Source: Pseudomonas cichorii (lineage in GTDB: Bacteria; Pseudomonadota; Gammaproteobacteria; Pseudomonadales; Pseudomonadaceae). Taken from it: a stretch of DNA of 64,000 nucleotides. Positions within the stretch are counted from its first letter, which is position 1. Every line of letters starts with the position of its first letter. The notes below the pieces were generated by a model that did no database searches, was not told where the DNA came from, and worked only from the letters and a program-made list of their open reading frames with translations. The position numbers were made by a program, and so were the translations under genes. This document shows, in pieces, positions 48,619 to 64,000 of this stretch. The stretch spans positions 3,338,001-3,402,000 of the forward strand of contig NZ_CP074349.1 in NCBI RefSeq assembly GCF_018343775.1. The letters are read 5' to 3'.

Positions 48619-48702
48619 CGGGTTCAGTTATGAAAGCAGAGCCTGTAGCATCCTGTGGCGCGCCTGTATCCAAAACGGCGCAAGACCCGGAGCTTGAGAT
48701 AG

Positions 48703-48891
48703 ATGGCACATTCACTTCAGTATCAGGTATCAGACTCCATTCGTGGTATCGAGACCGAAGTCGGCCGACTGCTTGATCTGGTGACCATGCTCAAGGAAGC
48801 AGGCAATGAAGACCTGGCCGCAAAAGTCAGCCTGCAGGCACACAGACTGCTTGAGGTGGCTGTGGCGTTGAGGATGGCTTTGGCGGGGTGA
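48703..48891 (+). CDS. 62-residue hypothetical protein
   Basis: A small, probably all-helical protein (SDSIRGIETEVGRLLDLVTM, then AAKVSLQAHRLLEVAVALRM) with no signal peptide and no cysteines. The ATG at 48703 follows GGAG at workable spacing. It lies between the importer terminator and the srf operon, about 240 bp from each, and appears monocistronic. I recognise no family. Codon use is like that of its neighbours. Confidence 0.55.
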   Translation: MAHSLQYQVSDSIRGIETEVGRLLDLVTMLKEAGNEDLAAKVSLQAHRLLEVAVALRMALAG

Positions 48892-49042
48892 GTCATGCGA
48901 GGTTAACCACCGCAATAACAGCCAAAAACGCCCTATCGCTGCACACTTCCTCCCCCAGCAATACGCCTTCGACCCGCCAAAACTGCGCGAACAGACCGGC
49001 TGATGATTTGTCATCGCGACCCGGAAACCTTTTGTATAAAAA

Positions 49043-49072
49043 TTGACGTAAACATCACTTTGCCATTACTGT
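49043..49072 (+). promoter_or_regulatory. candidate sigma-70 promoter for the srf operon
   Basis: -35 TTGACG (49043-49048) and -10-like TACTGT (49067-49072) with an 18-bp spacer, about 60 bp before the srfA ATG. The -10 is weak, so activation may be needed. Confidence 0.45.
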
Positions 49073-49132
49073 TGCGCCTTGCGGCAGCGTCATTGCTTAG
49101 CCAACGGATTGAATTACAAGGGAATGTAAAGC

Positions 49133-51130
49133 ATGCAGGCTGCGCTGCTTCGTACGGGCAAAAGTGACGAATTCATCGCTGTAGGCGAAACCGGGCAACC
49201 TGTTTACAAAGCAGCCCTACAGTTGATCGCAGCCCTCACCCGCAAAGATCCCTCCCTGGCCAGATTTCTTGCCGTGCCCAAAAGCAACGAGCAAGGCAGC
49301 GTGATCGACTGGTACAGCCCGGTCCCCGGCGACGTGGTGCCCTGGAGTTCGGCAAGCGAAGACGAGCGCGACGACGCCAGGGCACAACTGCTCCGATTCA
49401 AGGACGCCATCGCAGGCATGAGCAAAGCCTTGGTTCAGGCCGCCAACAAGGATGAGCAAAGAGACCAGATCATCTTTGGAAAATTGCTGGGGCTGATTCC
49501 TCATGCACCTGCCGAAGACTACCTGTATCTGGTCCAGACAACTCGCACTGATACCAACGGCGTTAACGAACCCTGCATACAGCCGGTGCTGACTTTCTGG
49601 GGTTTCGTACAGAGCGAAGCCGACCGGTATCATGACCCGCTATATTTTCTGGCCCAGAGTCCAATCGTCCCAGACATCTCCTCCTCACCAAGTCCGGCAT
49701 CTGCTGCAGATGTGACGAAACCGCAGATTACAACCACATCCGTTACATCTGGCCAGCCTAATCCATTGCTTCGTACGGGCAAAAGTGACGAACTCATAGC
49801 AATGGGTGAAACCGGGCAGGCGGTATACAAATCTGCCTTGCAGCTCATTTCAGCACTCGCCCGTAAAGATCCCTCCCTGGCCAGATTCCTTGCCGTGCCA
49901 AAAAGCAACGAACAGGGCAGTGTGATCGACTGGTATAGCCCGGTTCCAGGCGATGTGGTGCCCTGGAGTTCGGCCAGCGAAGACGAGCGCGACGCCGCAC
50001 GGGCCCAACTGTCCCGTTTCAAGGAAAACATCGCCGCGATGAGTCAGGCGCTTGTGCAGGCGGGTAAAAAGGACGGGCAAAGCGACCAGGCCATCTTTGG
50101 CAAACTGCTGGGACTGGTTTCGCATGCACCAGACGAAAGCTATGTGTATCTGGTCAAGACAACACGCACCAATGCCAGCGGCGATAACGAGTCCTACATG
50201 CAGCCGGTGCTGACTTTCTGGGGTTTCGTAAAAACCGAAACTGATCGTAACCGTGAGCCACTGTACTTTTTGACACAACAGCGAAAGGTTTATGTTCCAT
50301 CACCCGAGTCGACACCTTCTGTAAACCCAGCCACACCCCAGATGACAGCCACTCCTGTTGTGCTGCGCCCTTGGTGGCGTCGCTTCTGGTGGTTATGGCC
50401 ACTGCTGCTCTTGTTGCTGGCCTTGCTGTTATTCGGCCTGCTTCGCGGTTGCTTGCCAACGGCTACGTTGCCTATCGGCGGCCTTTCAGTACCGCCTGCA
50501 GGTATCGCCACAAACACCATCAGTGCAAGTAGCCAGCCAGTAGAGGGCATGGCGCTCAATGGTTCGACACTGTCAGCCAGCAGGGGCACTGTCAGCCCCA
50601 CTCAGCCTCAGACACAGACGACAGAACCAGCAGCGATAGCGCCTGGGCCGACAGCACAGTCTCAAGTCAGCGAAACCGCTGCAACCGAATCCGAAGCCGC
50701 ACCTGAACAGCCAGCAGAACAACCGACAGCCGAAGCCCAGACACCGCAATCCGGAACGCCTGGCGAACCCTTAAGCATTCCGCAGGACACAGGCGAAGGC
50801 CCGGCCTCCTTCCTCAACGGCAACTACCGTGCAGGTGCAGGCATTATGGATGCCAAGACTTCCAGACCCTTGCGCCTCCAGTATGCCTTCGAGAAAGGCA
50901 AGGGCAACGTCACTATCCGCCGTCCTGACGGCGTGTCCTGCACAGGTGCGGTCGATGCCGCCATGAATGGCGGAAGCCTGGGCATCAACAGTCAGGATCA
51001 GGCCAACTGCACCGACGGCAGTCGCTATGACATGCCACAAGTGTCCTGCAAACCGGGTGCCCAAAGCATCGCGGATTGCCAGGGCAACTACGGCAACACT
51101 CAATTCCCCATGTCCATGCGGCGCGAATAA
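49133..51130 (+). CDS. srfA: SrfA-family protein with duplicated N-terminal domain
   Basis: A 665-residue single-pass membrane protein. Two copies of a roughly 190-residue domain (1-185 and 210-390) share long identical stretches such as KDPSLARFLAVPKSNEQGSV and SPVPGDVVPWSSASEDERD. A Pro-rich linker leads to one transmembrane segment near 418-438 (WPLLLLLLALLLFGLL). A low-complexity Pro/Thr/Glu region and a C-terminal domain of about 110 residues with four Cys (NGNYRAGAGIMD, CTGAVDAAMNGG) follow and are probably periplasmic. SrfA, SrfB and SrfC are named from Salmonella as SsrB-regulated factors. ATG at 49133 follows AAGGGA. It is the first gene of the operon. Confidence 0.85.
   Translation: MQAALLRTGKSDEFIAVGETGQPVYKAALQLIAALTRKDPSLARFLAVPKSNEQGSVIDWYSPVPGDVVPWSSASEDERDDARAQLLRFKDAIAGMSKALVQAANKDEQRDQIIFGKLLGLIPHAPAEDYLYLVQTTRTDTNGVNEPCIQPVLTFWGFVQSEADRYHDPLYFLAQSPIVPDISSSPSPASAADVTKPQITTTSVTSGQPNPLLRTGKSDELIAMGETGQAVYKSALQLISALARKDPSLARFLAVPKSNEQGSVIDWYSPVPGDVVPWSSASEDERDAARAQLSRFKENIAAMSQALVQAGKKDGQSDQAIFGKLLGLVSHAPDESYVYLVKTTRTNASGDNESYMQPVLTFWGFVKTETDRNREPLYFLTQQRKVYVPSPESTPSVNPATPQMTATPVVLRPWWRRFWWLWPLLLLLLALLLFGLLRGCLPTATLPIGGLSVPPAGIATNTISASSQPVEGMALNGSTLSASRGTVSPTQPQTQTTEPAAIAPGPTAQSQVSETAATESEAAPEQPAEQPTAEAQTPQSGTPGEPLSIPQDTGEGPASFLNGNYRAGAGIMDAKTSRPLRLQYAFEKGKGNVTIRRPDGVSCTGAVDAAMNGGSLGINSQDQANCTDGSRYDMPQVSCKPGAQSIADCQGNYGNTQFPMSMRRE
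49147..50280 (+). repeat. in-gene tandem duplication in srfA (unit offset 621 bp)
   Basis: The stretch from 49147 and the stretch from 49768 begin with the same GCTTCGTACGGGCAAAAGTG. They stay highly similar over about 500 bp, mostly with silent third-base differences, and the reading frame is kept. Confidence 0.85.
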
Positions 51131-51141
51131 AGGCTGGACCC

Positions 51142-54100
51142 ATGCTGCCAGAACTGACTCAATTTGAAGAAACCGTCCACTTGATCAATGACAGCGGGCT
51201 CCAGTTCATGGACTTCGCGGTCAAGCTTGATCTGCGTAACGAGCCCGCCGGGCGCTTTGCAAGGATGGGCAACACCCTGATCGCACGCCTGTTGCAGAAT
51301 CAGGAAAGCAAACAGTACTTCCACTTCGGCCCGGTGGGCACGGCCAGCCAGTCTGGCGAAAGGCTGGCACAGTCACAGGCTCAGGAACGCCTGATCAGTG
51401 AGGTCGACGACGAAGATCTGACCCTGAGCATGCAGACCAGCCTCAGGCTGCTCGATGGATTATGGTTGCCCGTCCCCTTCTTTCGTTTCCTGCCACCAGA
51501 GCGTTATGACGAAGGCCCGACCAACTGGGCAAGGGCGCGTCTGGTCGAGCTTGAGCAAGCGGATGTAGACGGCAACACTCACCGCCTGACCCTGGCGTTC
51601 GACACCCGCGCCATGGCCTCGGCAGCAGGCATGCAGTACCTGGCGCCGACCCGTGACGACATCAATGCTGGTTCATCTTTCCGTCTGGCGTGCCATGCAC
51701 GCCAGAGCCGCTGGTTTCTGGACCAGAAATGGGTGCAGGACTGGCTGGCGGAAATCTATCGCGAAGGCAACAAACATCGCCCCGGCGAAGACGTCGACGA
51801 GGAACTGGTCGAGCAGCGCCACATTGGTCACTACCTGAACTTGCTGAGCCTGATGGCCCGGCCAATTCCCGAGCAGCGTACCAGCGAGCCCGCACGCATC
51901 GAGGTACCGGAGGTCAAGCTCACCGCCAACGGCGTCGACTCCATCGACCCGCCCATTCCAGTAGATCTGGTGCTGGACGTCGGCAACTCACGCACCTGCG
52001 GCATCCTGATCGAGAATCACGGGCAATCCGGCGACGGGATGAAGCACAACTACATCCTGCAGATCCGTGACCTCGTACGCTCAGAGCGGGTTTACAACCA
52101 ACCCTTTGAAAGCCGGATCGAGTTTTCCCAGGCCGCCTTCGGCAAGGAAAACTTTTCGGTACAAAGCGGTCGCCATGACGCTTTCCAGTGGCCGACCATC
52201 GCCCGCGTCGGAGTTGAAGCCGGACGTTTGTCCGCACGTCGCCGTGGTACCGAAGGCTCGACCGGTCTGTCGAGCCCCAAGCGTTATCTCTGGGATGAAA
52301 ACGCCTACACCCACGGTTGGCGCTTCAACAACTCTTACGTACAGACCGACAACGAGCCCAAAGCCACTGCTGCGCCCTTCTCACACAAGATCACCAAGCT
52401 CGGCCAGGCGTTCTACAAGCTCAAGAACGAGGATGATCGCCTGCCCGCGTTCTCCCCGCAGTATTCTCGCAGTTCGCTGATGACGTTCATGCTCGCAGAG
52501 GTACTGACTCAGGCCTTGTCACAGATCAACAGCCCGGCGCAGCGGACCCGCATGGGCCACACCCAGCGGCCACGCCAGTTGTCCAGCATCACCCTGACCG
52601 TGCCGCCGGGCATGCCGCAAGTCGAGCGCAGTCTGCTCAATGACCGTCTACTGCAAGCCCTGGCGCTGGTCTGGAAATGCATGGGCTGGCACGAAGGCGA
52701 CCTCGACCCGAGCAAGGCCAAAGGCCTGAATTCACCGGTACCGGCGCCACGAGTCCCATTGCCACGAGTAAAAGTGGAATGGGATGAAGCCACCTGTGGC
52801 CAACTGGTTTACCTGTACACCGAAATCCGCGAAAACTTTGCCGGTCATGCCCAGGAGTTCTTCGACACCCTCGCACGCCCGGACAAGGCCAATCGGGAGC
52901 AGATCACCCTGGCCAGCATCGATATCGGTGGCGGCACTACCGATCTGGTCATCACCGATTACGCGCTGGAGCGTGGTGCCGAGCATGCAAGCGGCAGTAA
53001 CGTATCGATCATCCCCGAGCAGCGCTTTCGGGACAGCTTCAAGGTCGCCGGTGATGACATCCTGCTGGATATCATTCAGCGTTTCGTACTGCCGCCGCTG
53101 GAACAGGCACTCAAGGACTTCGGCGTGGTATCGCCACGCTCGCTGCTTTCGCGCTTGTGCGGCGATGAAAGTACCAGTGCTCAGGACGCCATTCTGCGCC
53201 AGCAACTGAACCTGCAAGTGTTCGTTCCCCTGGGCCTGCGCCTGCTCAAGGACTACGAGGCATACGACCCGGAATTGCCAAGCCCGGTCCATGACTACAG
53301 CTTCGCCGAGCTGCTGGAAAAAGACGCGATCAGCGAACGTATCCATGAATACGTGGCAGGTGGCGTACGCCGTATCGATGGTGGCCGTGACGGCTTCGAC
53401 CTGGGCAAGGTCGTGCTGCGCATCGACTTGCCTGCCATTCATCAGGCCTTCCTCAAAGGCCAGATCAACCTGAGCAAGATTCTCGATGCCCTGTGCGAAG
53501 TGGTGTTCCAGTACCCTTGCGACGCACTGCTGCTGACCGGTCGACCATCGCGCCTGCCGGGCGTACAGGCTTACATACGCCGCAAGGTGCCGCTGCCACC
53601 GGGACGCATCGTGCCCATGAACGGTTATCGCACCGGCGGCTGGTACCCGTTCCACCGCAATGGCCAGATCGACGACCCCAAGAGCACGGCTGCCGTGGGT
53701 GCCATGCTGTGCCTGCTCAGCGAACAGCGCAAAGTGTCGAACTTCTATTTCAGCGTTGGCCGTCTCAAGCCGTACTCGACCATGCGCCATATCGGCAAGC
53801 TGGACGAAAACAATCTGGTCATCGACCACGACATGCTCTACCGGGACGTGATCAAGAGCGACGCCCAGGGCAATGAGTTCCTGCAACTGCACGAACCGCA
53901 ACTGGAAGGTCCACAACTGCGGGTACTGGGCAAGACCCGTCTGGGTTATCGCCAGTTGAATGCAGAACGTTGGGTCGCGGCACCGCTGTACCTGATCGAA
54001 CTCACCGAGCGCGGCACTCGCAAACTGGTGGGCAAACCCACAACCGACGGTAAAGAAGCCTGCCTGCTGTTGCGCTTTCGCGTAGAAAGCGCCGACGCAG

Positions 54101-54279
54101 ATCGCAGCGACGCCGACATCATCGCCGAGACACTGATGATCGACGACAACATCGAAAGCAACGTCCTGGATCAATCCTTCGACCGTAAGGACGTAAGGCT
54201 GCAGCTCTACACCATGTTGAGCGCTGAAGGCGGTGCCTCCAACTATTGGCTCGACAGCGGGAGCGTGAGTCCGAAATGA
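51142..54279 (+). CDS. srfB: SrfB-family protein (Hsp70/actin-type ATPase fold)
   Basis: A 1045-residue cytoplasmic protein of the virulence factor SrfB family. Motifs of the actin/Hsp70 ATPase fold are visible: phosphate-1 DVGNSRTCG near residue 279, phosphate-2 DIGGGTTDLVI near 594, and an adenosine-type motif LLLTGRPSRLPGVQAYI near 796. This implies nucleotide-driven conformational work, perhaps chaperone-like or in complex assembly. It has no signal peptide or membrane segment. The start is ATG at 51142, 11 bp after the srfA stop. It overlaps srfC by 4 bp, so the three products are likely made in fixed ratio. The biochemical role of SrfB is not established. Confidence 0.9.
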   Translation: MLPELTQFEETVHLINDSGLQFMDFAVKLDLRNEPAGRFARMGNTLIARLLQNQESKQYFHFGPVGTASQSGERLAQSQAQERLISEVDDEDLTLSMQTSLRLLDGLWLPVPFFRFLPPERYDEGPTNWARARLVELEQADVDGNTHRLTLAFDTRAMASAAGMQYLAPTRDDINAGSSFRLACHARQSRWFLDQKWVQDWLAEIYREGNKHRPGEDVDEELVEQRHIGHYLNLLSLMARPIPEQRTSEPARIEVPEVKLTANGVDSIDPPIPVDLVLDVGNSRTCGILIENHGQSGDGMKHNYILQIRDLVRSERVYNQPFESRIEFSQAAFGKENFSVQSGRHDAFQWPTIARVGVEAGRLSARRRGTEGSTGLSSPKRYLWDENAYTHGWRFNNSYVQTDNEPKATAAPFSHKITKLGQAFYKLKNEDDRLPAFSPQYSRSSLMTFMLAEVLTQALSQINSPAQRTRMGHTQRPRQLSSITLTVPPGMPQVERSLLNDRLLQALALVWKCMGWHEGDLDPSKAKGLNSPVPAPRVPLPRVKVEWDEATCGQLVYLYTEIRENFAGHAQEFFDTLARPDKANREQITLASIDIGGGTTDLVITDYALERGAEHASGSNVSIIPEQRFRDSFKVAGDDILLDIIQRFVLPPLEQALKDFGVVSPRSLLSRLCGDESTSAQDAILRQQLNLQVFVPLGLRLLKDYEAYDPELPSPVHDYSFAELLEKDAISERIHEYVAGGVRRIDGGRDGFDLGKVVLRIDLPAIHQAFLKGQINLSKILDALCEVVFQYPCDALLLTGRPSRLPGVQAYIRRKVPLPPGRIVPMNGYRTGGWYPFHRNGQIDDPKSTAAVGAMLCLLSEQRKVSNFYFSVGRLKPYSTMRHIGKLDENNLVIDHDMLYRDVIKSDAQGNEFLQLHEPQLEGPQLRVLGKTRLGYRQLNAERWVAAPLYLIELTERGTRKLVGKPTTDGKEACLLLRFRVESADADRSDADIIAETLMIDDNIESNVLDQSFDRKDVRLQLYTMLSAEGGASNYWLDSGSVSPK

Positions 54280-56969
54280 CTACTCTGACCACCGAACAGA
54301 TTCAACTCGCACTCGCATGGACATCGGTACACAAGGGCGCTGGCCTGGCCCTGGACTGGGTGGAAGAAGTGGCGGGCAAAGTCGAGGAAGTGGCGGCCAA
54401 GGCTGTCCCGCTCAATCGCGACCTGCACCGTGCCCGCAATCTGGCACGCAGTCTGGGTCGAGTCTCCACCACCCCCATGGGCATAGGTTTCTTCGGTTTG
54501 TCCCAGGCAGGCAAGAGCTACCTGATTTCGGCTCTGGCCGCAGACAGCAAGGGCCAGCTTCTGACCCAGTTCGGCACCCAGTCACTGGACTTCATCAAGC
54601 ATGTAAATCCGGTGGGCGGCGGCAAGGAGGCCACCGGTCTGGTCACTCGCTTCACGCGCCGCGCAGAACCCGGCAAGGACCCTCAGTTTCCGGTGGAGTT
54701 ACGGCTGTTTCGTGAGGTCGAGATCGCCATTATTCTGGCCAATGCCTGGTTCGAGGACTTCGACCATCAGCGCCTGAACAGTCAGATCACCGATGCGCAC
54801 ATCGACGCTCTGCTGCAGCGCTTTGAAGATCACGCGGCCACGCAAGCGACGCCGGGTGTCAGCAGTGACGATGTCGTACTGCTCTGGGATTATCTGGAAC
54901 ACAACTACCCCAACGCCGTGCGCCCGCTGAATGCCCGCTACTGGCAACGGGTAGTCAAGCTGGCGCCAATGTTGTCGGTTCGTGAACGCGCCCAGTTGTT
55001 CTCCCTGCTGTGGGGCGGCATCAACAAGATGACCGAAACCTACGAGCAACTGGCAGCCGCCCTGCACCGCCTGGGTCTGGCCGAAACGGTCTTCGCGCCG
55101 ATCTCGGCGCTGGTCAGCGAGCGTGACGGCCAGATGATCCAGACCAACAGCATCATCAACGTGGACATCCTCAGCCGCTTGGGCGGTAGCGGGGACAGTG
55201 CACTGGAAGTCCGCCCGACCCATGAAGGCAACCTGGGGGCACCTGTGTCGGTGAGCAGAGCCGAACTGGCAGCACTCACCAACGAGCTGATTTTCCGTCT
55301 GGACAACGAACCGGCCAACGCCATCGTCAACAGCGTCGACCTTCTGGACTTCCCCGGCTATCGCAGTCGCCAGAAGCTGATGAGCATCGACGAAGCCAGT
55401 GAAGTGGACAGCAGCGGCGCAACCAACAACCCGGTTGCCAAACTGCTGCTGCGCGGCAAGGTCGCTTACCTGTTCGAGCGCTACACCAATGAGCAGGAAA
55501 TGAACGCGCTGGTCATGTGCACCAGCAGCTTCAAGCAAAGCGAAGTGGTCAGCGTGGGGCCGGTGCTCAAGAGCTGGATCGACAAGACCCAGGGCGCCAG
55601 TGCCCAGGAGCGCGATGGCCGGGCCAGCGGGTTGATATGGGCCTTGACCATGTGTGACGGCTTCATCGGCAGCGCGCTGAACGGCGAAACCGTGCAGTTC
55701 CCCGAGTCCTGCGACAACATGCTCAAGCTGACCATGATCGAGCGCTTCGGCAACGAAGAGTGGATGAAACAGTGGGGCAACACGCCGTTCAAGAACACCT
55801 ATCTGGTGCGCAAGCCACGCTTCAAGACAAGCTTCATCGACCTGGCAGCCGATGGTGAAGAACTCGGTTTCAACGACTCATCCAAAGTCGCCTTGCAGGC
55901 TTTGCAGGCAGCATTCGGCAACAACGAACTGGTCAAGCGCCATGTCGCCGAACCGCTGGATGCCTGGCAGGCGATGCTCAAGCTCAACGATGGCGGTATG
56001 AGCCGCTTCAGTAGTGCCTTCACGCCAGTGGCTAATATCAACTTCAAGCTGCAGCGTATCTCAGAACAGCTGGATGACTTGATGGTGAAGTTGCTGCCGC
56101 GCCTGGAGGAGTACTACGAGGCTGGCGGTGAAGACGAACGGGGCAAGAAAAAAGCCATTGCCAACCTGATCGTGCGCCCCTTCGCCACCACCAAGCACGG
56201 TAAATACGTACTGGGTGAACTGCTCGCCTACATGGCGGTGCCGGAAGATCAGTTGCGCGATCTCTATCTGAACGGCGACTTCGACAGCCCGGCTACCGAA
56301 ACCACCGATGCGGCCCCGGCCGACAGTGCCCCGGAAGTGGAATACGACATTTTCGGCGACGCTGTCACCCCGGCAGCCGAAGCGCCACCTGTCGCAGTGG
56401 CCGTGCCGCAATACCAGAGCCATGAGCACCGCTTTGCCCGTGCGGCATTCAACCTGTGGGCAACGCACTTGCGTGGCCTCAGCCGGCGCCAGCATTTGCT
56501 GGACCAACTGGAGTTGCCGTCCGACGCCATTGCCTTGCTGGTCAAGGAACTGGTGGTCTGCGCCGAACGTCTGGATGTGCCCTTGCAACTGAGCCAGGCC
56601 TTGCTCAAGCGTGCCCAGAGCGGCGTGCGCAGAGAAAACCTGGTTCAGCGCCAGGTGCTGACGGCACAACTGCTGCTCGACGATTTTACCGCCTGGTTCG
56701 GTCATACCGCCCAGCCAGCCAGCCAACGGCCTGCCGGCCTGCTGGGCGCAAAGCAGCCGCTGTTTTCTTTCTATCAGAAGGAAATGCCCGGTCGCTTCCC
56801 GCTTCTGGCACCGCAAGCCGACGACCAGAGCGTGATCTTCGCCGACGACTGGATTTCCGGCATTGCCATTCACACCCAGAACAATGTGGGCCATCGCAAG
56901 GGCAAAGAAATCACGCCCGAGCAGAATGAGGCCCTGGGCCGCGTCATCCAGGCCTTCAAAGCGAGATAA
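54276..56969 (+). CDS. srfC: SrfC-family protein (large P-loop GTPase-like)
   Basis: An 897-residue protein of the virulence factor SrfC family. A P-loop, GFFGLSQAGKSYLISAL, lies near residues 71-87 with GLSQAGKS as the Walker A/G1 motif. LLDFPGYRS near 359 resembles a dynamin-type G3 motif (DxPG). These suggest a dynamin-like GTPase, which would couple nucleotide hydrolysis to membrane or complex remodelling. The middle and C-terminal thirds are helical, with an acidic Pro-rich linker near 675-710. The ATG overlaps the srfB stop. The GTPase reading is inference from motifs. Confidence 0.88.
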   Translation: MTTLTTEQIQLALAWTSVHKGAGLALDWVEEVAGKVEEVAAKAVPLNRDLHRARNLARSLGRVSTTPMGIGFFGLSQAGKSYLISALAADSKGQLLTQFGTQSLDFIKHVNPVGGGKEATGLVTRFTRRAEPGKDPQFPVELRLFREVEIAIILANAWFEDFDHQRLNSQITDAHIDALLQRFEDHAATQATPGVSSDDVVLLWDYLEHNYPNAVRPLNARYWQRVVKLAPMLSVRERAQLFSLLWGGINKMTETYEQLAAALHRLGLAETVFAPISALVSERDGQMIQTNSIINVDILSRLGGSGDSALEVRPTHEGNLGAPVSVSRAELAALTNELIFRLDNEPANAIVNSVDLLDFPGYRSRQKLMSIDEASEVDSSGATNNPVAKLLLRGKVAYLFERYTNEQEMNALVMCTSSFKQSEVVSVGPVLKSWIDKTQGASAQERDGRASGLIWALTMCDGFIGSALNGETVQFPESCDNMLKLTMIERFGNEEWMKQWGNTPFKNTYLVRKPRFKTSFIDLAADGEELGFNDSSKVALQALQAAFGNNELVKRHVAEPLDAWQAMLKLNDGGMSRFSSAFTPVANINFKLQRISEQLDDLMVKLLPRLEEYYEAGGEDERGKKKAIANLIVRPFATTKHGKYVLGELLAYMAVPEDQLRDLYLNGDFDSPATETTDAAPADSAPEVEYDIFGDAVTPAAEAPPVAVAVPQYQSHEHRFARAAFNLWATHLRGLSRRQHLLDQLELPSDAIALLVKELVVCAERLDVPLQLSQALLKRAQSGVRRENLVQRQVLTAQLLLDDFTAWFGHTAQPASQRPAGLLGAKQPLFSFYQKEMPGRFPLLAPQADDQSVIFADDWISGIAIHTQNNVGHRKGKEITPEQNEALGRVIQAFKAR

Positions 56970-56972
56970 CTC

Positions 56973-57989
56973 ATGTCCATCACGATCAAGCTCACTCCCT
57001 TGGCCAGTCCGGCTCCCGGACGCGCCTTTCTTCAAGTACGTGGTTGGGAGCATGATGCTGGCAACCTGGAGTTCGCCATCCAGCGCAATCAGGATGATTA
57101 CTACCTGCAGCATGACCAGCAATGGGGCAATGCGCCCTGCTGGTTCGCCCAGCACTTCGTGGAAGATGCCGACGGCGACTCGATCAGCTATGAAGCTGGC
57201 CCGGAAATCGTCGATCCGTTGCTGCTGAGCTCTGTGACGAGCATCTTCAACTTTCGCCTGCGCAGCCCGGACGGCAGCGCTGAAGATGAAAACCCCATGC
57301 GCCTTGCTCCCGGCCTGAACTCATCCCTGGCGGTGAGTGCAACCAATGTGGGTGCAGCGCAAACGACTGTCAGCCTTGGGCAGCCTTCGGTAATACCGCA
57401 ACCGGTTGTCGAGCCCGTGGCCGAACAGCCAGAGGAAGTACAACCGCTACCCGAACCCATCGCCGAACCACCGACACCGGCCAAAAGCCGCACGGCCCTG
57501 CTGCTGATCGGCGTTCTGGTCTTGCTGGTTATCGCGGCGGGCTTGTGGTTCTGGCTCAAGAAGCCTGTGACTCCCGAAGCCGTTGCACCTGTAACGACTC
57601 CGGCAGTCGTCGCAGAACCGGTGCCCGCCCCGGCCGTAGCCGCGGTTCCTTGTAGCATCGAAGCATTGAGCAAAGAGACTGAACTGAACTTTGTCCAGAG
57701 CTGCATCAAACAGGCACCCGACAGCGCGACGCTGCTCAAGGTCATCGAGCTGGCCAAGGCCAACAAGCAATGTGGCGTCGCGCAGCGGCTGTACGCCAAC
57801 CGCGCCCAGGCAGGCAATGTCGAAGTGGCTCAGGCCTATGCCCGCGAGTACGACCCCAAGTACCTGCAACCCAGCGCCTGCTTCACCACTGCGGACAATG
57901 CCACTGCCGCTTACTGGTACGAGACCATCCTCAGCTATCAGGCCGACAACGCTGAAGCAGCAGAGCGTCTGAAGGAGCTCAAACCGTGA
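56973..57989 (+). CDS. single-pass membrane protein of the srf operon, unknown function
   Basis: A 338-residue protein I cannot name. Residues 1-115 form a compact beta-rich cytoplasmic domain (GRAFLQVRGWEHDAGNLEFA, then WGNAPCWFAQHFVED). A Pro/Glu-rich linker follows, then one membrane helix near 173-193 (LLLIGVLVLLVIAAGLWFWL). The periplasmic tail of about 145 residues is helical and repeat-like (CIKQAPDSATLLKVIELAKA, NVEVAQAYAREYDPKYLQPS), reminiscent of tetratricopeptide/Sel1 adaptors. It overlaps the next gene by 4 bp. It may link cytoplasmic SrfB/SrfC to the periplasmic VWA protein. Confidence 0.75.
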   Translation: MSITIKLTPLASPAPGRAFLQVRGWEHDAGNLEFAIQRNQDDYYLQHDQQWGNAPCWFAQHFVEDADGDSISYEAGPEIVDPLLLSSVTSIFNFRLRSPDGSAEDENPMRLAPGLNSSLAVSATNVGAAQTTVSLGQPSVIPQPVVEPVAEQPEEVQPLPEPIAEPPTPAKSRTALLLIGVLVLLVIAAGLWFWLKKPVTPEAVAPVTTPAVVAEPVPAPAVAAVPCSIEALSKETELNFVQSCIKQAPDSATLLKVIELAKANKQCGVAQRLYANRAQAGNVEVAQAYAREYDPKYLQPSACFTTADNATAAYWYETILSYQADNAEAAERLKELKP

Positions 57990-59971
57990 TCCTGCGCAAC
58001 GTCTCCCTGACACTCGCCACCTGCCTGTGCTTGAGCAGTGGCTACGCCCTGGCCGCCGACAAACCGCTGCTGCAGGAAGGCAAGAAGACTCTGTTCCAGC
58101 GCGTACTCACCACGCCCGGATGTCACTTGAGCACTGCTGCCGGTGGTACTCCCGGCGCGGAGCAACCGGCGTTCAGCCGTTTCTATGTTTACGAGCATGC
58201 CACCGCAGGCAATGCAGAGTGGCTGAAGGTCGGCCCGGACAGTTTCGGCAAGACCAGCGGCTGGTTGCCCGCTGCCTGCACCGTGGACTGGAAGATGCAG
58301 TTGACCCTGGCCTTCACTAACCCGGCCAACCGCGACCGCTTGATGTTCTTCAAGGAGCGCAAGACCCTGGAAGGCATCCTCGACGCGCCGGACCCGGTGA
58401 GTCATGTTGCCCCGCTGCGGGCCAAGCTCAAGCAGAACACGCTTGCGCCGGGCGTACTGGCTCAGGAGCCTGAATACTTCATCGACATGCACAAGCAGTT
58501 CTACCTGCTGCCGGTTCTCAGTGGCGAAGAAGTCATGACCGAAGCAGGCTTTCGCACACGCATTCTCAATGTTGCCTCGGTCAGCAAGGCTGATCCGGCA
58601 AACGCCGTGCCAGCAGGCCAGGCCGGTGCAGTACAGGGTCAGGGCCAGCTACCTCCAGACGCTGCCAGCCAGCTCAAGGAGTTCAGCGCCGCCGTCGTGT
58701 TCGTGATCGATTCGACCATTTCCATGGACCCTTACATCGAACGCACTCGCGAAGCCATCAGCAAGGTCTACGCGCAGATCGCCAAGGAAAACCTTGGGCG
58801 CCAGGTGAAGTTCGGCCTGGTGGCGTTCCGCTCCAGCACCCAGGCAGTACCGGGGCTGGAATACGTCACCAAGATGTATGCCGACCCCAATACCGTGAAA
58901 GATGGTGATGACTTCCTGGCCAAGGCCGCTGATCTGAAGCAGGCGAAAGTATCGAGCAAAAGCTTTGACGAAGACTCGTATGCAGGGGTCATGCAGGCCA
59001 TCGAACAAGTGGACTGGAGCCCCTTCGGCGCCCGCTATGTGGTGCTGATTACCGATGCAGGTGCTCTGGAAGGCGACGACAAGCTGTCCAAGACTGGCCT
59101 GAATGCCGAACAGGTACGCATCGAGGCCAGCAACCCTGGCGTGGCCATCTACACCCTGCACTTGAAAACAGCCGCAGGCGTCAAGGATCACGCCAAGGCC
59201 GAAGCCCAGTATCAGGCGCTGTCCACCTATACCGGCACCAACACCTCGCTGTACTACCCGGTGGATGCCGGCGACCTGAATACATTTGGCAGCAAGGTCG
59301 ACACGCTGGCCAGTGCGATTACCAGCCAGGTGAAAGCCGCCTACATGGGCGACGATGCCATTGGCAGCGCCATGAACGCCAAGGCCACCCCCGCCGAACA
59401 GAAAATGCTCGACGATGCGGCGCTGATCGGTCATGCCATGCGCCTGGCCTATCTGGGTGAGAAAACCGGTACCCAGGCACCGCCGGTATTTCAGGCGTGG
59501 ATTGCCGACCGTGACCCGATCAAGCAGAACGTCCCGACCACGGATGTGCGGGTGCTGCTGACCAAGGCGCAACTCAGCGACCTCAGCGACGTGCTGAAGA
59601 AAATCCTCGATGCCGCCAACGAAGGCCTGATTTCTCCGAGCGAGATGTTCGATCGCCTGCGTTCGGTTGCCGCCACCATGGGCACCGATCCCAATCAGCT
59701 CAAGCAGAACGGCACCGCCAAGCTGTCGGAACTGGGCGTGCTGGGGGAATACCTGGAAGACCTGCCCTATCACAGCGAAGTGCTGAACCTAGATGAGGAA
59801 ACCTGGAAAAGCTGGGATGGTCTGGCTCAGGAAAAATTCATCCGCACCCTGTCGACCAAGCTGCGCCATTACCAGGTGTACAACGCCGATGTGGACCGCT
59901 GGGTATCACTGGCAGAAGGCAGCGACGCCCGTGACAACGTTTACCCCGTGCCGCTGGAAATGATGCCCTGA
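57986..59971 (+). CDS. secreted VWA-domain protein resembling the periplasmic half of PpkA
   Basis: A 661-residue protein with a signal peptide (TLATCLCLSSGYALA). An N-terminal domain of about 170 residues is followed by a von Willebrand A domain with the MIDAS start VIDSTISM near 241-248, FGLVAFRSS near 277 and LITDAGALEGD near 354. A long helical C-terminal region follows. The order and text of the VWA part resemble, from memory, the C-terminal periplasmic region of the T6SS kinase PpkA, but the kinase and membrane helix of PpkA are absent. The start is GTG overlapping the upstream stop codon. MIDAS domains bind protein partners in a metal-dependent way; the partner here may be the TagR-like protein. 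Confidence 0.8.
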   Translation: MILRNVSLTLATCLCLSSGYALAADKPLLQEGKKTLFQRVLTTPGCHLSTAAGGTPGAEQPAFSRFYVYEHATAGNAEWLKVGPDSFGKTSGWLPAACTVDWKMQLTLAFTNPANRDRLMFFKERKTLEGILDAPDPVSHVAPLRAKLKQNTLAPGVLAQEPEYFIDMHKQFYLLPVLSGEEVMTEAGFRTRILNVASVSKADPANAVPAGQAGAVQGQGQLPPDAASQLKEFSAAVVFVIDSTISMDPYIERTREAISKVYAQIAKENLGRQVKFGLVAFRSSTQAVPGLEYVTKMYADPNTVKDGDDFLAKAADLKQAKVSSKSFDEDSYAGVMQAIEQVDWSPFGARYVVLITDAGALEGDDKLSKTGLNAEQVRIEASNPGVAIYTLHLKTAAGVKDHAKAEAQYQALSTYTGTNTSLYYPVDAGDLNTFGSKVDTLASAITSQVKAAYMGDDAIGSAMNAKATPAEQKMLDDAALIGHAMRLAYLGEKTGTQAPPVFQAWIADRDPIKQNVPTTDVRVLLTKAQLSDLSDVLKKILDAANEGLISPSEMFDRLRSVAATMGTDPNQLKQNGTAKLSELGVLGEYLEDLPYHSEVLNLDEETWKSWDGLAQEKFIRTLSTKLRHYQVYNADVDRWVSLAEGSDARDNVYPVPLEMMP

Positions 59972-59972
59972 C

Positions 59973-60665
59973 ATGCTTCGGATCAAGGGACTGAAGATAC
60001 AGCGAGGAACCGGCTCGAACGCGCACCGGGTTCATGTGCCCGAGTTGAACCTGGCACGCGGCGCAGTGCTGGCGATTACCGGCGAGAGCGGATGCGGCAA
60101 AAGCACACTGCTCGAAACCCTGGGTCTGCTGCTGGCTCCCGAAGCCCTTGGTCAGTATCGCCTGGGCAATCAGGATATTGCTGCCCTGCTGGCCGCCGAC
60201 GATCAAGTGGCCCTGGCCGATGTACGCGCCCGCTCACTGGGTTTTGTGCTGCAAAGCGGCGGGCTGCTGCCGTTCCTCAAGGTCAGGGACAACATCAACC
60301 TGCCCAGACGCCTGCTGGGGCTGAGCAACAAAAGCGCTCATGTAGAGCGAGCCATCGACGCTCTGCATCTGGGCCCCTTGCTGGACAAGCTGCCTCAGGC
60401 TTTGTCCATCGGCGAGCGGCAGCGGGTTGCCTGCGTGCGCGCCATTGCCCATCAACCACAACTCTTGCTGGCCGACGAACCCACCGCGGCACTCGACCCC
60501 CACAACGCGCGGCAACTGTTCGAGTTGCTGCTGGGGCTGGTGGACGAACTGGGCCTCAGCGCGCTGGTGGTCTCCCATGACTGGAGTCTTGTAGGCAGCT
60601 TCGGCCTGCCGCGCCTGAATGCCGTCAACCTGCCAGGGGAGACGCGCTTTGAAACAGTCCATTGA
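59973..60665 (+). CDS. ABC transporter ATPase, TagT/LolD/MacB-like
   Basis: A 230-residue ATPase. Walker A is GESGCGKSTLLETLG near residue 35, a Q-loop follows (GFVLQSGGLLPFLKV), the signature is SIGERQRVACVRAI near 147 with Ser-Ile-Gly in place of the usual LSGG, Walker B is LLADEPTAALDP near 167, and the His switch is in VVSHDW. It belongs to the mechanotransmission class (MacB/LolD/FtsE), which moves no small solute. With the next three genes it matches the order tagT-tagS-tagR-tagQ. It starts 1 bp after the VWA stop codon. Confidence 0.85.
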   Translation: MLRIKGLKIQRGTGSNAHRVHVPELNLARGAVLAITGESGCGKSTLLETLGLLLAPEALGQYRLGNQDIAALLAADDQVALADVRARSLGFVLQSGGLLPFLKVRDNINLPRRLLGLSNKSAHVERAIDALHLGPLLDKLPQALSIGERQRVACVRAIAHQPQLLLADEPTAALDPHNARQLFELLLGLVDELGLSALVVSHDWSLVGSFGLPRLNAVNLPGETRFETVH

Positions 60666-61872
60666 ACGCCTCTGCCTGTTGGCAGGCCTGGCTCTGGCCG
60701 ACCTCTGGCATGACCGAAAGGTGTCCTTGTGCATAGCGGCCTCGCTGGTGGCAGTGATCGCTCCCCTATTGTTGTTATTCGGGCTCAAACATGGCGTGGT
60801 CAGCCAGTTGCAGGACGAGTTGTTGCGCGACCCGCGCAATCTGGAAATCAAGCTGTTGAGCAGCGGCAACTATGACCAGCATTGGCTGAACACACTGCAA
60901 CAGAGGCCGGAAACCGGCTTTGCCCTGGGCATGACCCGCTCGCTCAATACCCAGGCTGACCTGATCGGCAGCAAAGGCCGTTTTGTCGATAACACCGAAG
61001 TCATTCCCACCGCTGTCGCAGACCCGCTATTGAACATGCCTGCCAGCGCACTCCTGCCCGGCCAGGTGATTCTCAGCTCTGCAGCTGCCGAACGCCTTTC
61101 CCTGAGGGTCGGCGATACCCTGCGCCTGCGTGTGCAACGGCGTCTGGACGGCGCTCTGGAAAGAGGCGAAACCACTCTGACGCTGGTTGCCACCCTGCCT
61201 GCTGCGGGCTTTTCGCGCCCGGCAGCATTCGTCTATCCCGACCTGCTGCTGCAACTGGAACGTTTTCGTGATGGCTATGCGGTCGATGCCCTGGGTGCCA
61301 CAAGCGGTCAGTCAGCAGAACACCTGGCGCCCCGCTATGCCCGCGCTCGCCTGTATGCACGGGACATAGAGAGTGTCGCGCCGCTGGAGCGCTGGCTGAA
61401 CGCGCAGCACATCGAAACCGGCAGTCGACTGGCCGACATCGAGAATGTCAAAGCGATAAACCACGTGCTGGGCGTGATCTTCGGGGTGATTGCCGGTGCG
61501 GCCCTGCTGGGCTGTATCGCTTCGCTGGTGGGTGCCTTTCTCGCCAATATCGACCGTAAGCGTCGCAGCCTGGCATTGCTGAGACTGCTGGGTTTTACCG
61601 GCCCGGCGGTTGCCGGTTACGTGGTCATGCAAGCCGTCGTGCTGGCATTGGCGGGCTACCTCGGCGGCCTGTGTTTCTACCTTGCTGGCAGTCAGGCTTT
61701 CAACCAGTTGCTGGGTGGTCAGCGCATCACCGGCAGTTTCGTTTGCCATATCACCCCTTTGCACGGCCTGGCAGCGCTGGCGCTCGCCCTTGCGGTCGCG
61801 GCGCTGGTCGCGCTGGTCGGTGCCACACGGGCTATCAGAATCCAACCTGCGGAGAGTCTTCGTGAACTCTAG
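60649..61872 (+). CDS. FtsX/MacB-type ABC permease, TagS-like
   Basis: A 407-residue inner-membrane protein. One N-terminal membrane helix (CIAASLVAVIAPLLLLFGL) is followed by a large periplasmic domain of about 230 residues and then three C-terminal helices (HVLGVIFGVIAGAALLGCIA, VMQAVVLALAGYLGGLCFYL, ALALALAVAALVALVGATRA). This 1+3 topology is that of MacB/LolC/TagS. The start is TTG at 60649 with AGGGGAG at good spacing, overlapping the ATPase gene by 17 bp. It is predicted to form, with the TagT-like ATPase, a transducer that passes ATP-driven motion to periplasmic partners. Confidence 0.85.
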   Translation: MKQSIERLCLLAGLALADLWHDRKVSLCIAASLVAVIAPLLLLFGLKHGVVSQLQDELLRDPRNLEIKLLSSGNYDQHWLNTLQQRPETGFALGMTRSLNTQADLIGSKGRFVDNTEVIPTAVADPLLNMPASALLPGQVILSSAAAERLSLRVGDTLRLRVQRRLDGALERGETTLTLVATLPAAGFSRPAAFVYPDLLLQLERFRDGYAVDALGATSGQSAEHLAPRYARARLYARDIESVAPLERWLNAQHIETGSRLADIENVKAINHVLGVIFGVIAGAALLGCIASLVGAFLANIDRKRRSLALLRLLGFTGPAVAGYVVMQAVVLALAGYLGGLCFYLAGSQAFNQLLGGQRITGSFVCHITPLHGLAALALALAVAALVALVGATRAIRIQPAESLREL

Positions 61873-63409
61873 ACACTGGCGCCACTTGCTGTTTGTGCCA
61901 CTGGCCCTGGCCAGCCTTCAGGCTTCGGCGGCCTGGGAAGAGAAACTCTACAACCCCATGCCCGCTGCCGAAGACGTGGTACTGCCCATGCCTTGCGACG
62001 GCGCCATGGTGTTTCGCAAAGTGTTCATTCCTCTGGCCGGCCCGCTGGACGACTACCCCATCAATATCGGTGGCGACAACAGCGAATGGGGCTATGTGGA
62101 ACAGACTCACCCGGCCTTCATCGCGGGCAGCTTCACCGCCGAGAAAACCGCAAAATCGCGTTACTACCTGCTGGCCAAATACGAGATGACGGACCTGCAA
62201 TACCGCTCCCTGACGCAGGCAGAATGTCCGACGCCCTCGAACAAGCAACGACTGCCAGCGGTATCCCTGAGCTGGATGCAGGCCATGGAAGCCGCCGACA
62301 AATACAACCTCTGGTTACGCCAGAACGCAGCCGACAAACTGCCCAAGGAAGATGGCGTGGCAGGTTTCGTACGCTTGCCGACCGAAGTGGAATGGGAATT
62401 TGCCGCTCGCGGCGGGCTGAACGTCAGCACTGCAGAGTTTCGGGACCTGCGCTATCCGATGCCGGATGGACTGAACGCTTATGAATGGTTCGCCGGGGCA
62501 CAGTCTTCCAACGGGCAGTTGCAACTGGCAGGCCTGCTCAAGCCCAATGCCCTTGGCCTGCACGATATGCTCGGCAACGTCGATGAGATGATGTTCGAGC
62601 CGTTCCGCCTGAACAAGCTCGACCGCCAGCACGGTCAGGCCGGTGGCTATGTGGTGCGCGGTGGCGACTACCGCACGGCTCAGGGTGAGTTGCGTAGCGC
62701 TTTGCGCAAGGAGCGCAATTACTACGAAGACAAGACTGCCGCTACCAGCAAGACTACAGGCCTGCGTCTGGCACTGGTGTCCAGCACTCTCACCTCCCGC
62801 GAACGGGTCAGCAGTATTGAAAGCAGCTGGAAAAAACTTGGCACCGGCAGTGGCGAAACAGCTCAGGGTAACGACAAGAATGCCGTGCAGGCGCTTGGCA
62901 CTCTGGCTTCGGGCGTTGCCGACGAAGCCCTGAAGGAACAGCTCAAGACCCTGGAAAACCAGTTGCGCGCCAGCAACCAGCAGCAGGAAGAAACCCGTGA
63001 CCAGGCCATACGCGCCAGCCTCAATCTGGGTGCGTTCCTGTGCACCAAGATGCTCGACGACGGCAAATACCTGGACTTCCTGCAGAAGAACTACGAGCTC
63101 AACTGCTCGGCAAGCGAGCAGGACAGCAGTTGCCCGATGCGCAAAAGCAAACTCGACGAACAGAAAGATCGTCTGCACAAGCTAAGCCGCTACTACGCCA
63201 GCAGTCTGGTGGATTCCGGCACCCTTTATGGCGAACCGCTGCTGGCCCGACAAGTACCGATCATGGGTGAAATCGTCGCCCGCAACGAACAGCTCAAAGA
63301 GCTCAAGCCGTATCTGCAGACCCACTGGGTCAATCAGCAGGCCTTTCTCAAAACCCAGAAAATCGACACCGATGCCTGGCTTGGCCGCTGCAAGGCCGTC
63401 AGTCAGTAA
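61862..63409 (+). CDS. secreted FGE-sulfatase-fold protein, TagR-like
   Basis: A 515-residue protein with a signal peptide (LLFVPLALASLQASA). Residues about 50-310 show the formylglycine-generating-enzyme/SUMF1 fold: RLPTEVEWEFAARGG near 174, LGNVDEMMFEPF near 240, VVRGGDYRTAQGE near 265 and TTGLRLAL near 297. The C-terminal 200 residues are helical with a likely coiled coil (KEQLKTLENQLRASNQQQEE). TagR of P. aeruginosa has the same fold and acts in the periplasm upstream of PpkA. The start is GTG at 61862 after GGAGAG, inside the permease gene by 11 bp. The catalytic cysteines of true FGE enzymes are not evident, so a binding role is more likely. Confidence 0.83.
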   Translation: MNSRHWRHLLFVPLALASLQASAAWEEKLYNPMPAAEDVVLPMPCDGAMVFRKVFIPLAGPLDDYPINIGGDNSEWGYVEQTHPAFIAGSFTAEKTAKSRYYLLAKYEMTDLQYRSLTQAECPTPSNKQRLPAVSLSWMQAMEAADKYNLWLRQNAADKLPKEDGVAGFVRLPTEVEWEFAARGGLNVSTAEFRDLRYPMPDGLNAYEWFAGAQSSNGQLQLAGLLKPNALGLHDMLGNVDEMMFEPFRLNKLDRQHGQAGGYVVRGGDYRTAQGELRSALRKERNYYEDKTAATSKTTGLRLALVSSTLTSRERVSSIESSWKKLGTGSGETAQGNDKNAVQALGTLASGVADEALKEQLKTLENQLRASNQQQEETRDQAIRASLNLGAFLCTKMLDDGKYLDFLQKNYELNCSASEQDSSCPMRKSKLDEQKDRLHKLSRYYASSLVDSGTLYGEPLLARQVPIMGEIVARNEQLKELKPYLQTHWVNQQAFLKTQKIDTDAWLGRCKAVSQ

Positions 63410-63441
63410 TTCGATGCACCTTTACCACCAGGAGCTGTAGC

Positions 63442-64000
63442 ATGAAACAAGTATGTGATTATCTTCCCAAGGCCATGCTAGGTCTGTTTCTGTCCGTCAG
63501 TCTGGTACTGGGCGGTTGCGCTCACACAGGCAGCAATATGCTTGGCGAGACCGGCACGGCACCCGACCCGCGCCTGACCCAGAGCGCCGACGCCAAGTTC
63601 TTCTCCACCTCAGGCCTGACAGCCTGTGCCGGTGCTGCTGGTGTGGGCATTCTGGCCTGCGCAGTAGCCAGCCCCAACGACAAGGTCAAATGCATGGTGG
63701 TAGCCGGTATCGCCGCGTGTGGCGTGGCCATGGGTGCCAACTATTACTACGACTATCGCCGCAGCCAGTACTCCAACACGACCCAGCGTCTGCAGTTGAT
63801 GAATGACGAAGTCAAAGCCGATACCGATAAAGTCGCCTTGCGTACCGCCACCCTGCAGCAGGTGATCAGCGACGACAAAGGCCGTATCGCCGATATCCAG
63901 AAGTCCATCCAGAACAAGACTGTGGACAAGGCCAAGGCCCAACAGGAAATCGCAAGCGTCGACAGCAACCTGACGCAAATGCGCAAAGACCTGGATGGCA
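63442..64000 (+). CDS. outer-membrane lipoprotein, TagQ-like (cut by window edge)
   Basis: At least 186 residues are visible and the frame is still open at the right edge. The N-terminus is a lipoprotein signal (LFLSVSLVLGGC) with Cys near residue 30. A Gly/Ala/Cys-rich hydrophobic stretch (TACAGAAGVGILACAVA, then CMVVAGIAACGVAMGANYYY) resembles a glycine-zipper segment. A long charged helix follows (LMNDEVKADTDKVALRTATL), probably a coiled coil. ATG at 63442 follows AGGAG. Position after the TagR-like gene and the lipoprotein nature match TagQ, which anchors TagR at the outer membrane. The identity is by context more than by sequence. Confidence 0.75.
   Translation, partial: MKQVCDYLPKAMLGLFLSVSLVLGGCAHTGSNMLGETGTAPDPRLTQSADAKFFSTSGLTACAGAAGVGILACAVASPNDKVKCMVVAGIAACGVAMGANYYYDYRRSQYSNTTQRLQLMNDEVKADTDKVALRTATLQQVISDDKGRIADIQKSIQNKTVDKAKAQQEIASVDSNLTQMRKDLDG

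What the first reader, a model, noticed from the sequence alone, without database searches (positions are those of the whole stretch)
49133..64000. Hybrid operon: SrfABC joined to a PpkA-VWA/TagTSRQ-like envelope module, without visible T6SS genes
Ten plus-strand genes are packed with overlaps or tiny gaps: srfA, srfB, srfC, a single-pass linker, a secreted VWA protein, then TagT-, TagS-, TagR- and TagQ-like genes. In P. aeruginosa TagQRST is the envelope sensor that activates PpkA of the H1-T6SS. Here the same architecture is attached to SrfB (Hsp70-like) and SrfC (GTPase-like). This suggests a self-contained trans-envelope machine that borrows the Tag sensor for another output, possibly toxin delivery or contact sensing.
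Basis: partly seen in the sequence, partly recalled or inferred. Interest (0 to 1): 0.85.

Follow-up and report, generated by a model that had tools for sequence, protein, structure and literature searches.

The report
Envelope sensor wired to dynamin-like machine
An eleven-gene bacterial operon joins proteins like the outer-membrane damage sensor of a bacterial weapon to an Hsp70/actin-like ATPase and a dynamin-like GTPase; it is widespread, mobile and found without the weapon, and its job is still unknown.

Summary
The operon runs about 2 kb past the window: eleven same-strand genes, srfA-srfB-srfC-Lnk-VWAp-TagT-TagS-TagR-lipoprotein-lipoprotein-TM/VWA, then katG. The Tag homology is real: VWAp matches the periplasmic half of PpkA but has no kinase; TagT, TagS, TagR and weakly TagQ match, in the order seen in five T6SS loci. 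It is not a local hybrid: all eleven genes occur in 27 of 28 SrfB-bearing Pseudomonadaceae, and SrfB-C-Lnk-VWAp-T-S-R stand in order in 71 of 73 named loci with enough flank. In a phylum sample, though, only 8 of 21 SrfB genomes have VWAp; 12 have srfABC alone, a nested, apparently reduced form. T6SS is not required: no marker in 31 srf stretches, and 7 of 28 genomes show no TssC. SrfC models as a dynamin-superfamily GTPase. The neighbourhood was already in print (PMC3608642, PMC6950479). Best reading: an envelope-stress sensor driving membrane remodelling; sensing and output are inference.

The parts
49133..51130 (+). srfA: cytosolic N-domain present twice in tandem, one TM segment (residues 416-446), periplasmic tail
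   Evidence: NF040486 525 bits; TM by hydropathy; the two copies 72% identical over 202 aa
51142..54279 (+). srfB: Hsp70/actin-type ATPase, 1045 aa
   Evidence: PF07520 1353 bits; near-invariant LDxGNSRTCG, D[IV]GGGT[TS]DL and [ST]GRP motifs in 14 rows; start codon
54276..56969 (+). srfC: dynamin-like GTPase, 897 aa, overlaps srfB by 4 bp
   Evidence: PF10139 1101 bits; invariant FGxSQAGKS and DFPGYR in 32 rows; model pLDDT 84; dynamin-superfamily matches
56973..57989 (+). Lnk: cytosolic beta-sandwich, one TM segment (168-199), periplasmic helical domain
57986..59971 (+). VWAp: secreted VWA protein matching the periplasmic half of PpkA, no kinase (GTG start)
   Evidence: weak PF00092, below its cut-off; family profile matches PpkA-type proteins at 547-587 bits and 509-551 bits in five T6SS loci
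59973..60665 (+). TagT-like ABC ATPase
   Evidence: PF00005 86 bits; profile matches T6SS TagT at 204-248 bits
60649..61872 (+). TagS-like FtsX-type permease (TTG start)
   Evidence: PF02687 39 bits; profile matches T6SS TagS at 284-318 bits; start
61862..63409 (+). TagR-like periplasmic FGE-fold protein; no Cys in the 28 residues from the RGG motif on
   Evidence: PF03781 104 bits; profile matches T6SS TagR at 240-260 bits; 16 of 16 rows lack the Cys
63442..64000 (+). Lip1, TagQ-like lipoprotein, cut by the window edge (ends at 64176 in window numbering)
   Evidence: ORF in L003 1443-2177; profile matches the gene after TagR in 4 of 5 T6SS loci at 28-40 bits
48597..49098 (+). upstream stretch shared with the P. 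capsici srf locus although the upstream genes differ; possible regulatory region
   Evidence: 506-column match at 79% to L105; no sigma-70-like site found in the stretch scanned

Best explanation
SHOWN BY SEQUENCE: this is a complete 11-gene Srf/Tag operon, the usual set in SrfB-bearing Pseudomonadaceae and not a local fusion. It encodes two lipoproteins (Lip1 weakly TagQ-like), a periplasmic TagR-like FGE-fold protein, a periplasmic VWA protein that corresponds to PpkA without kinase or TM, a TagT/TagS ABC pair, three single-pass proteins (SrfA, Lnk, VWAtm; SrfA and VWAtm share a cytosolic domain), an ATPase with Hsp70/actin motifs (SrfB) and a protein that models as a dynamin-like GTPase (SrfC). 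INFERRED: the Tag part senses local outer-membrane damage as TagQRST-PpkA does in P. aeruginosa. Since VWAp has no kinase or TM, the signal crosses the inner membrane through TagTS and the single-pass proteins (Lnk first, because it precedes VWAp and most mini cassettes checked have a like TM protein there). The output is ATP- and GTP-driven assembly of SrfB and SrfC on the inner membrane at that site, which remodels, tethers or repairs the envelope. It acts without a T6SS.
Confidence: 0.5

Rival explanations
1. It is a remote regulator of the T6SSs elsewhere in the genome: the Srf-linked Tag module senses damage and activates a T6SS that has no PpkA-VWA of its own.
For: The window genome has three TssC genes and no other VWAp or TagR homologue. 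Srf and PpkA-type proteins rarely share a genome (1 both, 27 srf only, 52 PpkA-type only, of 298; Fisher p 0.038, not corrected for kinship). P. syringae work counts a ppkA locus as a T6SS part and lists SrfB among T6SS genes (passages of PMC7146990).
Against: 7 of 28 SrfB Pseudomonadaceae show no TssC (one of them is only 76% complete); no kinase is encoded; all eleven genes travel together on a plasmid and in a chromosomal island.
Confidence: 0.12
2. SrfABC is a tripartite toxin or effector and the Tag/ABC genes export or time it.
For: SrfABC of Xenorhabdus stockiae was cytotoxic when all three were expressed in E. coli (PMC6950479, abstract and passages); PMC3608642 suggested that PpkA could trigger SrfC export (passages).
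Against: SrfB and SrfC have no TM segment and look like cytosolic NTPases; TagTS is an FtsX/LolCDE-type pair, which I would not expect to export large proteins; the T6SS-linked homologue acts as a sensor; 12 genomes of one family keep srfABC with no VWAp in the genome.
Confidence: 0.13
3. It is an anti-phage or anti-competitor defence system that guards envelope integrity.
For: Patchy presence (28 of 298 Pseudomonadaceae; 7 of 274 class genomes above cut-off); plasmid and tRNA-island copies; different upstream neighbours beside a SrfB 98% identical; a restriction-type gene set lies inside the Azomonas copy (named by eye).
Against: PADLOC gave only weak, coiled-coil-like hits to the two lipoproteins. 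No experiment. The same features fit any accessory trait.
Confidence: 0.15
4. It is an envelope transport or lipoprotein-handling complex (LolCDE/MacB-like) with helper NTPases.
For: TagT scores best against LolD, DevA and FtsE models; TagS matches FtsX and, weakly, LolCE.
Against: NCBIfam scores are far below the family cut-offs; patchy presence; the closest studied relatives are sensors.
Confidence: 0.1

Closest known systems
Srf/Tag neighbourhood of host-associated Deltaproteobacteria (PMC3608642, 2013) and of Xenorhabdus stockiae (PMC6950479, 2019)
   Same: srfABC beside tagQ and ppkA-like genes and mostly tagR, tagS and tagT, with T6SS machinery in only one of those Deltaproteobacteria (passages); T6SS post-translational control genes near srfABC (passages)
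   Different: The first names the VWA gene ppkA and suggests SrfC export; the second treats SrfABC as a toxin. Here the kinase is shown to be absent, Lnk, Lip2 and VWAtm are described, the spread is measured, and SrfC models as dynamin-like. The Deltaproteobacterial loci themselves were not examined here
TagQRST-PpkA threonine phosphorylation pathway of the P. aeruginosa H1-T6SS
   Same: Homologous periplasmic VWA, TagT, TagS, TagR and weakly TagQ, in the same order (the loci compared are unnamed Pseudomonadaceae)
   Different: No kinase and no T6SS genes; SrfA/B/C, Lnk, Lip2 and VWAtm are added; separate branch of the tree
Salmonella-type srfABC (three genes)
   Same: SrfA, SrfB and SrfC homologues
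   Different: The srfABC-only form has a shorter SrfC (710-820 aa) and no VWAp in the genome; its SrfB is one clade nested among the others. That Salmonella itself is of this form is recalled, not tested
Bacterial dynamin-like proteins (SynDLP, BDLP, IniA, LeoA) and mitofusins
   Same: Predicted fold and GTPase motifs of SrfC
   Different: About 8-12% identity; operon partners differ; GTPase activity untested

Membership tests
TagQRST-PpkA (T6SS threonine phosphorylation pathway) | PpkA periplasmic VWA region | tested here: met
   547-587 bits against 52 PpkA-type proteins; 509-551 bits in five T6SS loci
TagQRST-PpkA (T6SS threonine phosphorylation pathway) | Ser/Thr kinase domain in PpkA | tested here: not met
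   Pkinase found in L093 and L095, not in VWAp; kinase probe negative in all srf stretches probed
TagQRST-PpkA (T6SS threonine phosphorylation pathway) | TagT, TagS and TagR homologues in the order ppkA-T-S-R | tested here: met
   5 of 5 T6SS loci with TagTSR, TagT 204-248, TagS 284-318, TagR 240-260 bits; a sixth, L095, has the PpkA-type protein without them
TagQRST-PpkA (T6SS threonine phosphorylation pathway) | TagQ lipoprotein after TagR | tested here: inconclusive
   Position and lipoprotein-like start agree; 28-40 bits in 4 of 5 loci, none in L089
TagQRST-PpkA (T6SS threonine phosphorylation pathway) | PppA phosphatase and Fha partner in the locus | tested here: not met
   No PP2C or FHA family among the Pfam matches listed for the eleven proteins
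Type VI secretion system | Core genes (TssC, TssK, TssL, TssM, ClpV probed) in the locus | tested here: not met
   0 of 31 Pseudomonadaceae srf stretches, against 6 of 6 PpkA-bearing 20-kb loci
SrfABC family | SrfA, SrfB and SrfC profiles above cut-off | tested here: met
   NF040486 525 bits; PF07520 1353 and PF10139 1101 bits
SrfABC family | cytotoxicity | not testable with these tools
   claim seen in PMC6950479 only (abstract and passages)
Dynamin superfamily (SrfC) | GTPase P-loop and DxxG motifs | tested here: met
   FGxSQAGKS and DFPGYR invariant in 32 rows; motif meaning recalled
Dynamin superfamily (SrfC) | GTPase domain with N- and C-terminal helical neck/trunk | tested here: met
Dynamin superfamily (SrfC) | GTP hydrolysis and membrane binding | not testable with these tools
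   needs protein work
Actin/Hsp70 ATPase fold (SrfB) | phosphate-1, phosphate-2 and adenosine motifs | tested here: met
   near-invariant in 14 rows; motif meaning recalled
Actin/Hsp70 ATPase fold (SrfB) | overall fold | not tested
   no model made; no PDB sequence match
Formylglycine-generating enzyme (TagR-like) | catalytic Cys pair after the RGG motif (recalled) | tested here: not met
   no Cys in that stretch in 16 of 16 rows

The most novel reading that the evidence does not exclude
The Srf/Tag operon is a self-contained, horizontally mobile envelope-surveillance machine: a TagQRST-type outer-membrane-damage sensor in which, in place of a kinase, an actin/Hsp70-like ATPase and a dynamin-like GTPase remodel the inner membrane at the wound. 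Sensor modules of this family come in at least three forms (VWA-TagTS alone, kinase plus T6SS, Srf), and srfABC known as Salmonella virulence genes would be the stripped-down remnant of the third.
Probability: 0.3. Interest if true: 0.85.

Novelty: new variant of a known kind. Interest (0 to 1): 0.6.

Why it matters
srfB and srfC are annotated as 'virulence factors', and I found no mechanism for them in the papers searched. Showing that the full operon is an eleven-gene trans-envelope set with a known type of damage sensor and a dynamin-like GTPase turns a vague label into a testable machine, and may explain why SrfB was listed among T6SS genes in P. syringae work. It also shows that the TagQRST sensor is one member of a wider family that is not tied to T6SS. 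The eleven genes occur in Azotobacter vinelandii CA (L157; L048 is the same contig by its length), a harmless laboratory strain, though with extra DNA of about 1 kb in two places.

Tried and rejected
Distant MacB/FGE paralogues: rejected, since profiles built from the srf genes find the T6SS TagT/S/R at E 1e-61 to 1e-96, while the window genome has no second TagR match. T6SS cluster just downstream: rejected. Lnk N-domain as an FHA domain: only generic Ig-like matches were listed, which does not exclude it. PADLOC: only weak coiled-coil-like hits to the lipoproteins. PDB sequence searches with VWAp and SrfB: nothing. Phage records: no SrfB. Promoter and terminator scans: no promoter-like site upstream, one terminator-like site on the other strand downstream. 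Comparison of four flanking proteins with 60 srf loci: nothing at 1e-30, two weak hits at 1e-5; DNA matching gave three hits, one of them the shared upstream stretch in L105.

Limits and results against the reading. In the phylum sample 8 of 21 SrfB genomes above cut-off have VWAp, 12 are srfABC-only and one (G692) has SrfA-B-C and a Lnk-like gene but no VWAp; in the class sample 4 of 7 have it, and G060, G068 and G199 do not. L219 (G692) was labelled 'long' in the SrfB tree although it has no VWAp. My odds did not hang on that word and are unchanged. G275 lacks TagT onwards in the 20 kb fetched. One search counts presence, not order. Both trees are quick trees with SH-aLRT only, midpoint roots and flagged long branches; srf rows L220 and L221 fell outside the srf branch. 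T6SS context was checked in 6 of the 53 PpkA-type matches. L132 gave one TssL-like hit at 1e-26, not followed. In one search, 10 of 13 small TM proteins (8 of the 11 from mini loci) matched the Lnk profile, at E 9e-10 to 1e-3 against a 13-sequence file. In mini loci L233 and L235 the contig ends within 434 bases of TagS, so the lack of TagR there says little.
Full report
1. What is there. The window is G000:C1:3338001-3402000 of a 5.98-Mb single-contig genome. Its SrfB is 98% identical to that of Pseudomonas capsici and 95-97% to those of P. viridiflava and P. cichorii (best segments). From 49133 on, nine + strand genes are packed with overlaps or gaps of at most 32 bp: srfA, srfB, srfC, Lnk, VWAp, TagT-, TagS- and TagR-like genes and a lipoprotein cut by the window edge. 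In the genome the operon goes on with a second lipoprotein and a protein with a cytosolic domain, one TM segment and a weak VWA match, and ends before katG on the other strand.

2. Are the Tag genes real? Yes. A VWAp alignment (A3) run against 298 Pseudomonadaceae genomes gives two clear score classes: SrfB-linked matches (27 at 1176-1261 bits, plus one contig-end fragment in G390) and 52 at 547-587 bits, in frames mostly of about 1000-1190 aa, plus one at 358 bits in G305. The second class is PpkA: in L093 the protein starts with a protein kinase domain and stands beside IcmF, DotU and VasE. In five such loci the srf profiles find VWAp (509-551 bits), TagT (204-248), TagS (284-318) and TagR (240-260) in the order ppkA-T-S-R, and Lip1 weakly after TagR (28-40 bits) in four of them. 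T6SS probes (TssC, K, L, M, ClpV) ring in 6 of 6 PpkA-bearing 20-kb loci and in 0 of 31 Pseudomonadaceae srf stretches, 1 of 80 named srf loci (a TssL-like hit), 0 of 22 other srf stretches, 0 of 17 mini or related loci and 0 of 2 mobile copies; the kinase probe rings only in the PpkA loci. So VWAp corresponds to the periplasmic half of PpkA without its kinase and TM.

3. Is it a hybrid? Not a local one. SrfB occurs in 28 of 298 Pseudomonadaceae, and 27 of these 28 have all eleven genes in the stretches fetched (two of them over two stretches); G275 lacks TagT onwards there. In nine loci (Aeromonas and eight enterobacteria) the two lipoproteins and the TM/VWA gene stand upstream of srfA instead. 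In a tree of joined VWAp, TagT and TagS (53 rows), T6SS rows are one branch (5 rows, 100), srf rows another (29 of 31 rows, 99), and mini rows a third (14 rows plus L249, 100); two divergent srf rows lie outside and long branches are flagged.

4. But SrfB also lives without the Tag part. In the phylum sample 21 of 398 genomes have SrfB above cut-off: 8 have VWAp, 12 have srfABC alone, and one (G692) has SrfA-B-C and a Lnk-like gene but no VWAp. In the class sample 4 of 7 have VWAp; G060, G068 and G199 do not, and in the stretches of G068 and G199 SrfB stands without SrfC too. The 12 srfABC-only genomes are 12 of the 13 positives of one unnamed family (f177, by inference Enterobacteriaceae); their SrfC is 710-820 aa, and none has a VWAp match in the genome. 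Their SrfB form one clade (SH-aLRT 100) inside the others, next to L217, a full-operon member of the same family: one reduction is the simplest reading.

5. A third setting. Fourteen class genomes without SrfB have VWAp-TagT-TagS with no TagR, Srf or kinase nearby (in two the contig ends soon after TagS). In the 11 checked a small single-TM protein precedes VWAp, and in 8 of these 11 it matches the TM and periplasmic part of Lnk.

7. Does it need a T6SS? It seems not. 21 of 28 SrfB Pseudomonadaceae have TssC and 7 show none (G390 is only 76% complete). The window genome has three TssC genes over 380 kb away and no second VWAp or TagR of this family. Srf and PpkA-type proteins tend not to share a genome (1 both, 27 srf only, 52 PpkA-type only; Fisher p 0.038 without correction for kinship).

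8. Mobility. SrfB is found in 142 plasmid records, 114 of them Klebsiella, and VWAp in 125, again 114 Klebsiella. One Klebsiella plasmid carries all eleven genes between insertion sequences. DNA like the Klebsiella srfB lies in 31 of 5426 complete E. coli genomes, at 99% or more in 28, always chromosomal; in strain ET490 all eleven genes lie downstream of tRNA-Phe and an integrase gene. Beside a SrfB 98% identical, the window's upstream neighbours differ from those in P. capsici, while about 500 bp upstream of srfA are shared; the downstream side of L105 was not held.

9. Mechanism. In P. aeruginosa the TagQRST-PpkA pathway reports outer-membrane damage: deletion of tagQ or ppkA abolishes the response to indentation and to polymyxin B nonapeptide (PMC11881912, passages), and TagQ and TagR are the core, TagS and TagT modulators (PMC6657622, passages). 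I infer that the Srf module senses a like signal and, having no kinase, passes it through TagTS and the single-pass proteins to SrfB and SrfC, which act on the inner membrane. Sensing and output are inference. Published phenotypes, swarming for Salmonella srfABC (PMC4219756, passages) and cytotoxicity for Xenorhabdus SrfABC (PMC6950479, abstract and passages), neither prove nor exclude this.

10. Known or new. The neighbourhood is in print: PMC3608642 (passages) describes a ten-gene neighbourhood with srfABC, tagQ, ppkA and, in most genomes, tagR, tagS and tagT, with T6SS machinery in one genome only; PMC6950479 (passages) notes T6SS control genes beside srfABC. P. syringae work counts a ppkA locus as T6SS and lists SrfB among T6SS genes (PMC7146990, passages). 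In the listings I saw no paper on SrfC as a dynamin, on the missing kinase, on a reduction to srfABC, or on the mini cassettes; these searches were not aimed at each point, and the library holds open-licence papers only. I rate it a new variant of a known kind: a Tag-type sensor with a different output, functionally unstudied as far as I found.

Noticed in passing
L233-L246 (14 loci in class genomes without SrfB): Compact 'mini' cassettes of VWAp-TagT-TagS, in the 11 checked after a small single-TM protein with a helical periplasmic part; no TagR, Srf or kinase found nearby. A third setting of the Tag module that I did not see described.
   Followed up: partly
L205-L207, L209-L216, L218: srfABC-only operons with shortened SrfC in 12 genomes of one unnamed family, nested within the other SrfB: a probable single reduction.
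   Followed up: partly
window 49133-50400: srfA has a tandem duplication of its N-terminal domain (72% identity over 202 aa); P. capsici L105 has a SrfA of the same length, while P. cichorii L106 and P. viridiflava L107 have single-copy lengths.
   Followed up: partly
L044 6289-13877 (Azomonas agilis): A restriction-type gene set (HsdM-, HsdS- and HsdR-like ORFs and a small toxin-antitoxin-like pair, named by eye from sequence) lies between srfB and srfC.
   Followed up: no
L024 and L025: SrfB without SrfC or Tag genes, next to a small membrane protein and a response-regulator-like gene (named by eye).
   Followed up: no
L219 (G692): SrfA (two SrfA-like frames), SrfB, SrfC and a Lnk-like gene, but no VWAp match in the genome.
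   Followed up: no
L251 (Klebsiella plasmid pNH25.1) and L252 (E. coli ET490 chromosome): Complete eleven-gene copies on a plasmid and downstream of tRNA-Phe and an integrase; the SrfB genes are 99.8% identical.
   Followed up: partly
L247 and L248: Divergent VWAp-TagT-TagS-TagR sets without Srf, kinase or T6SS markers in the stretch.
   Followed up: no
window 48597-49098: About 500 bp upstream of srfA shared with P. capsici although the upstream genes differ.
   Followed up: no
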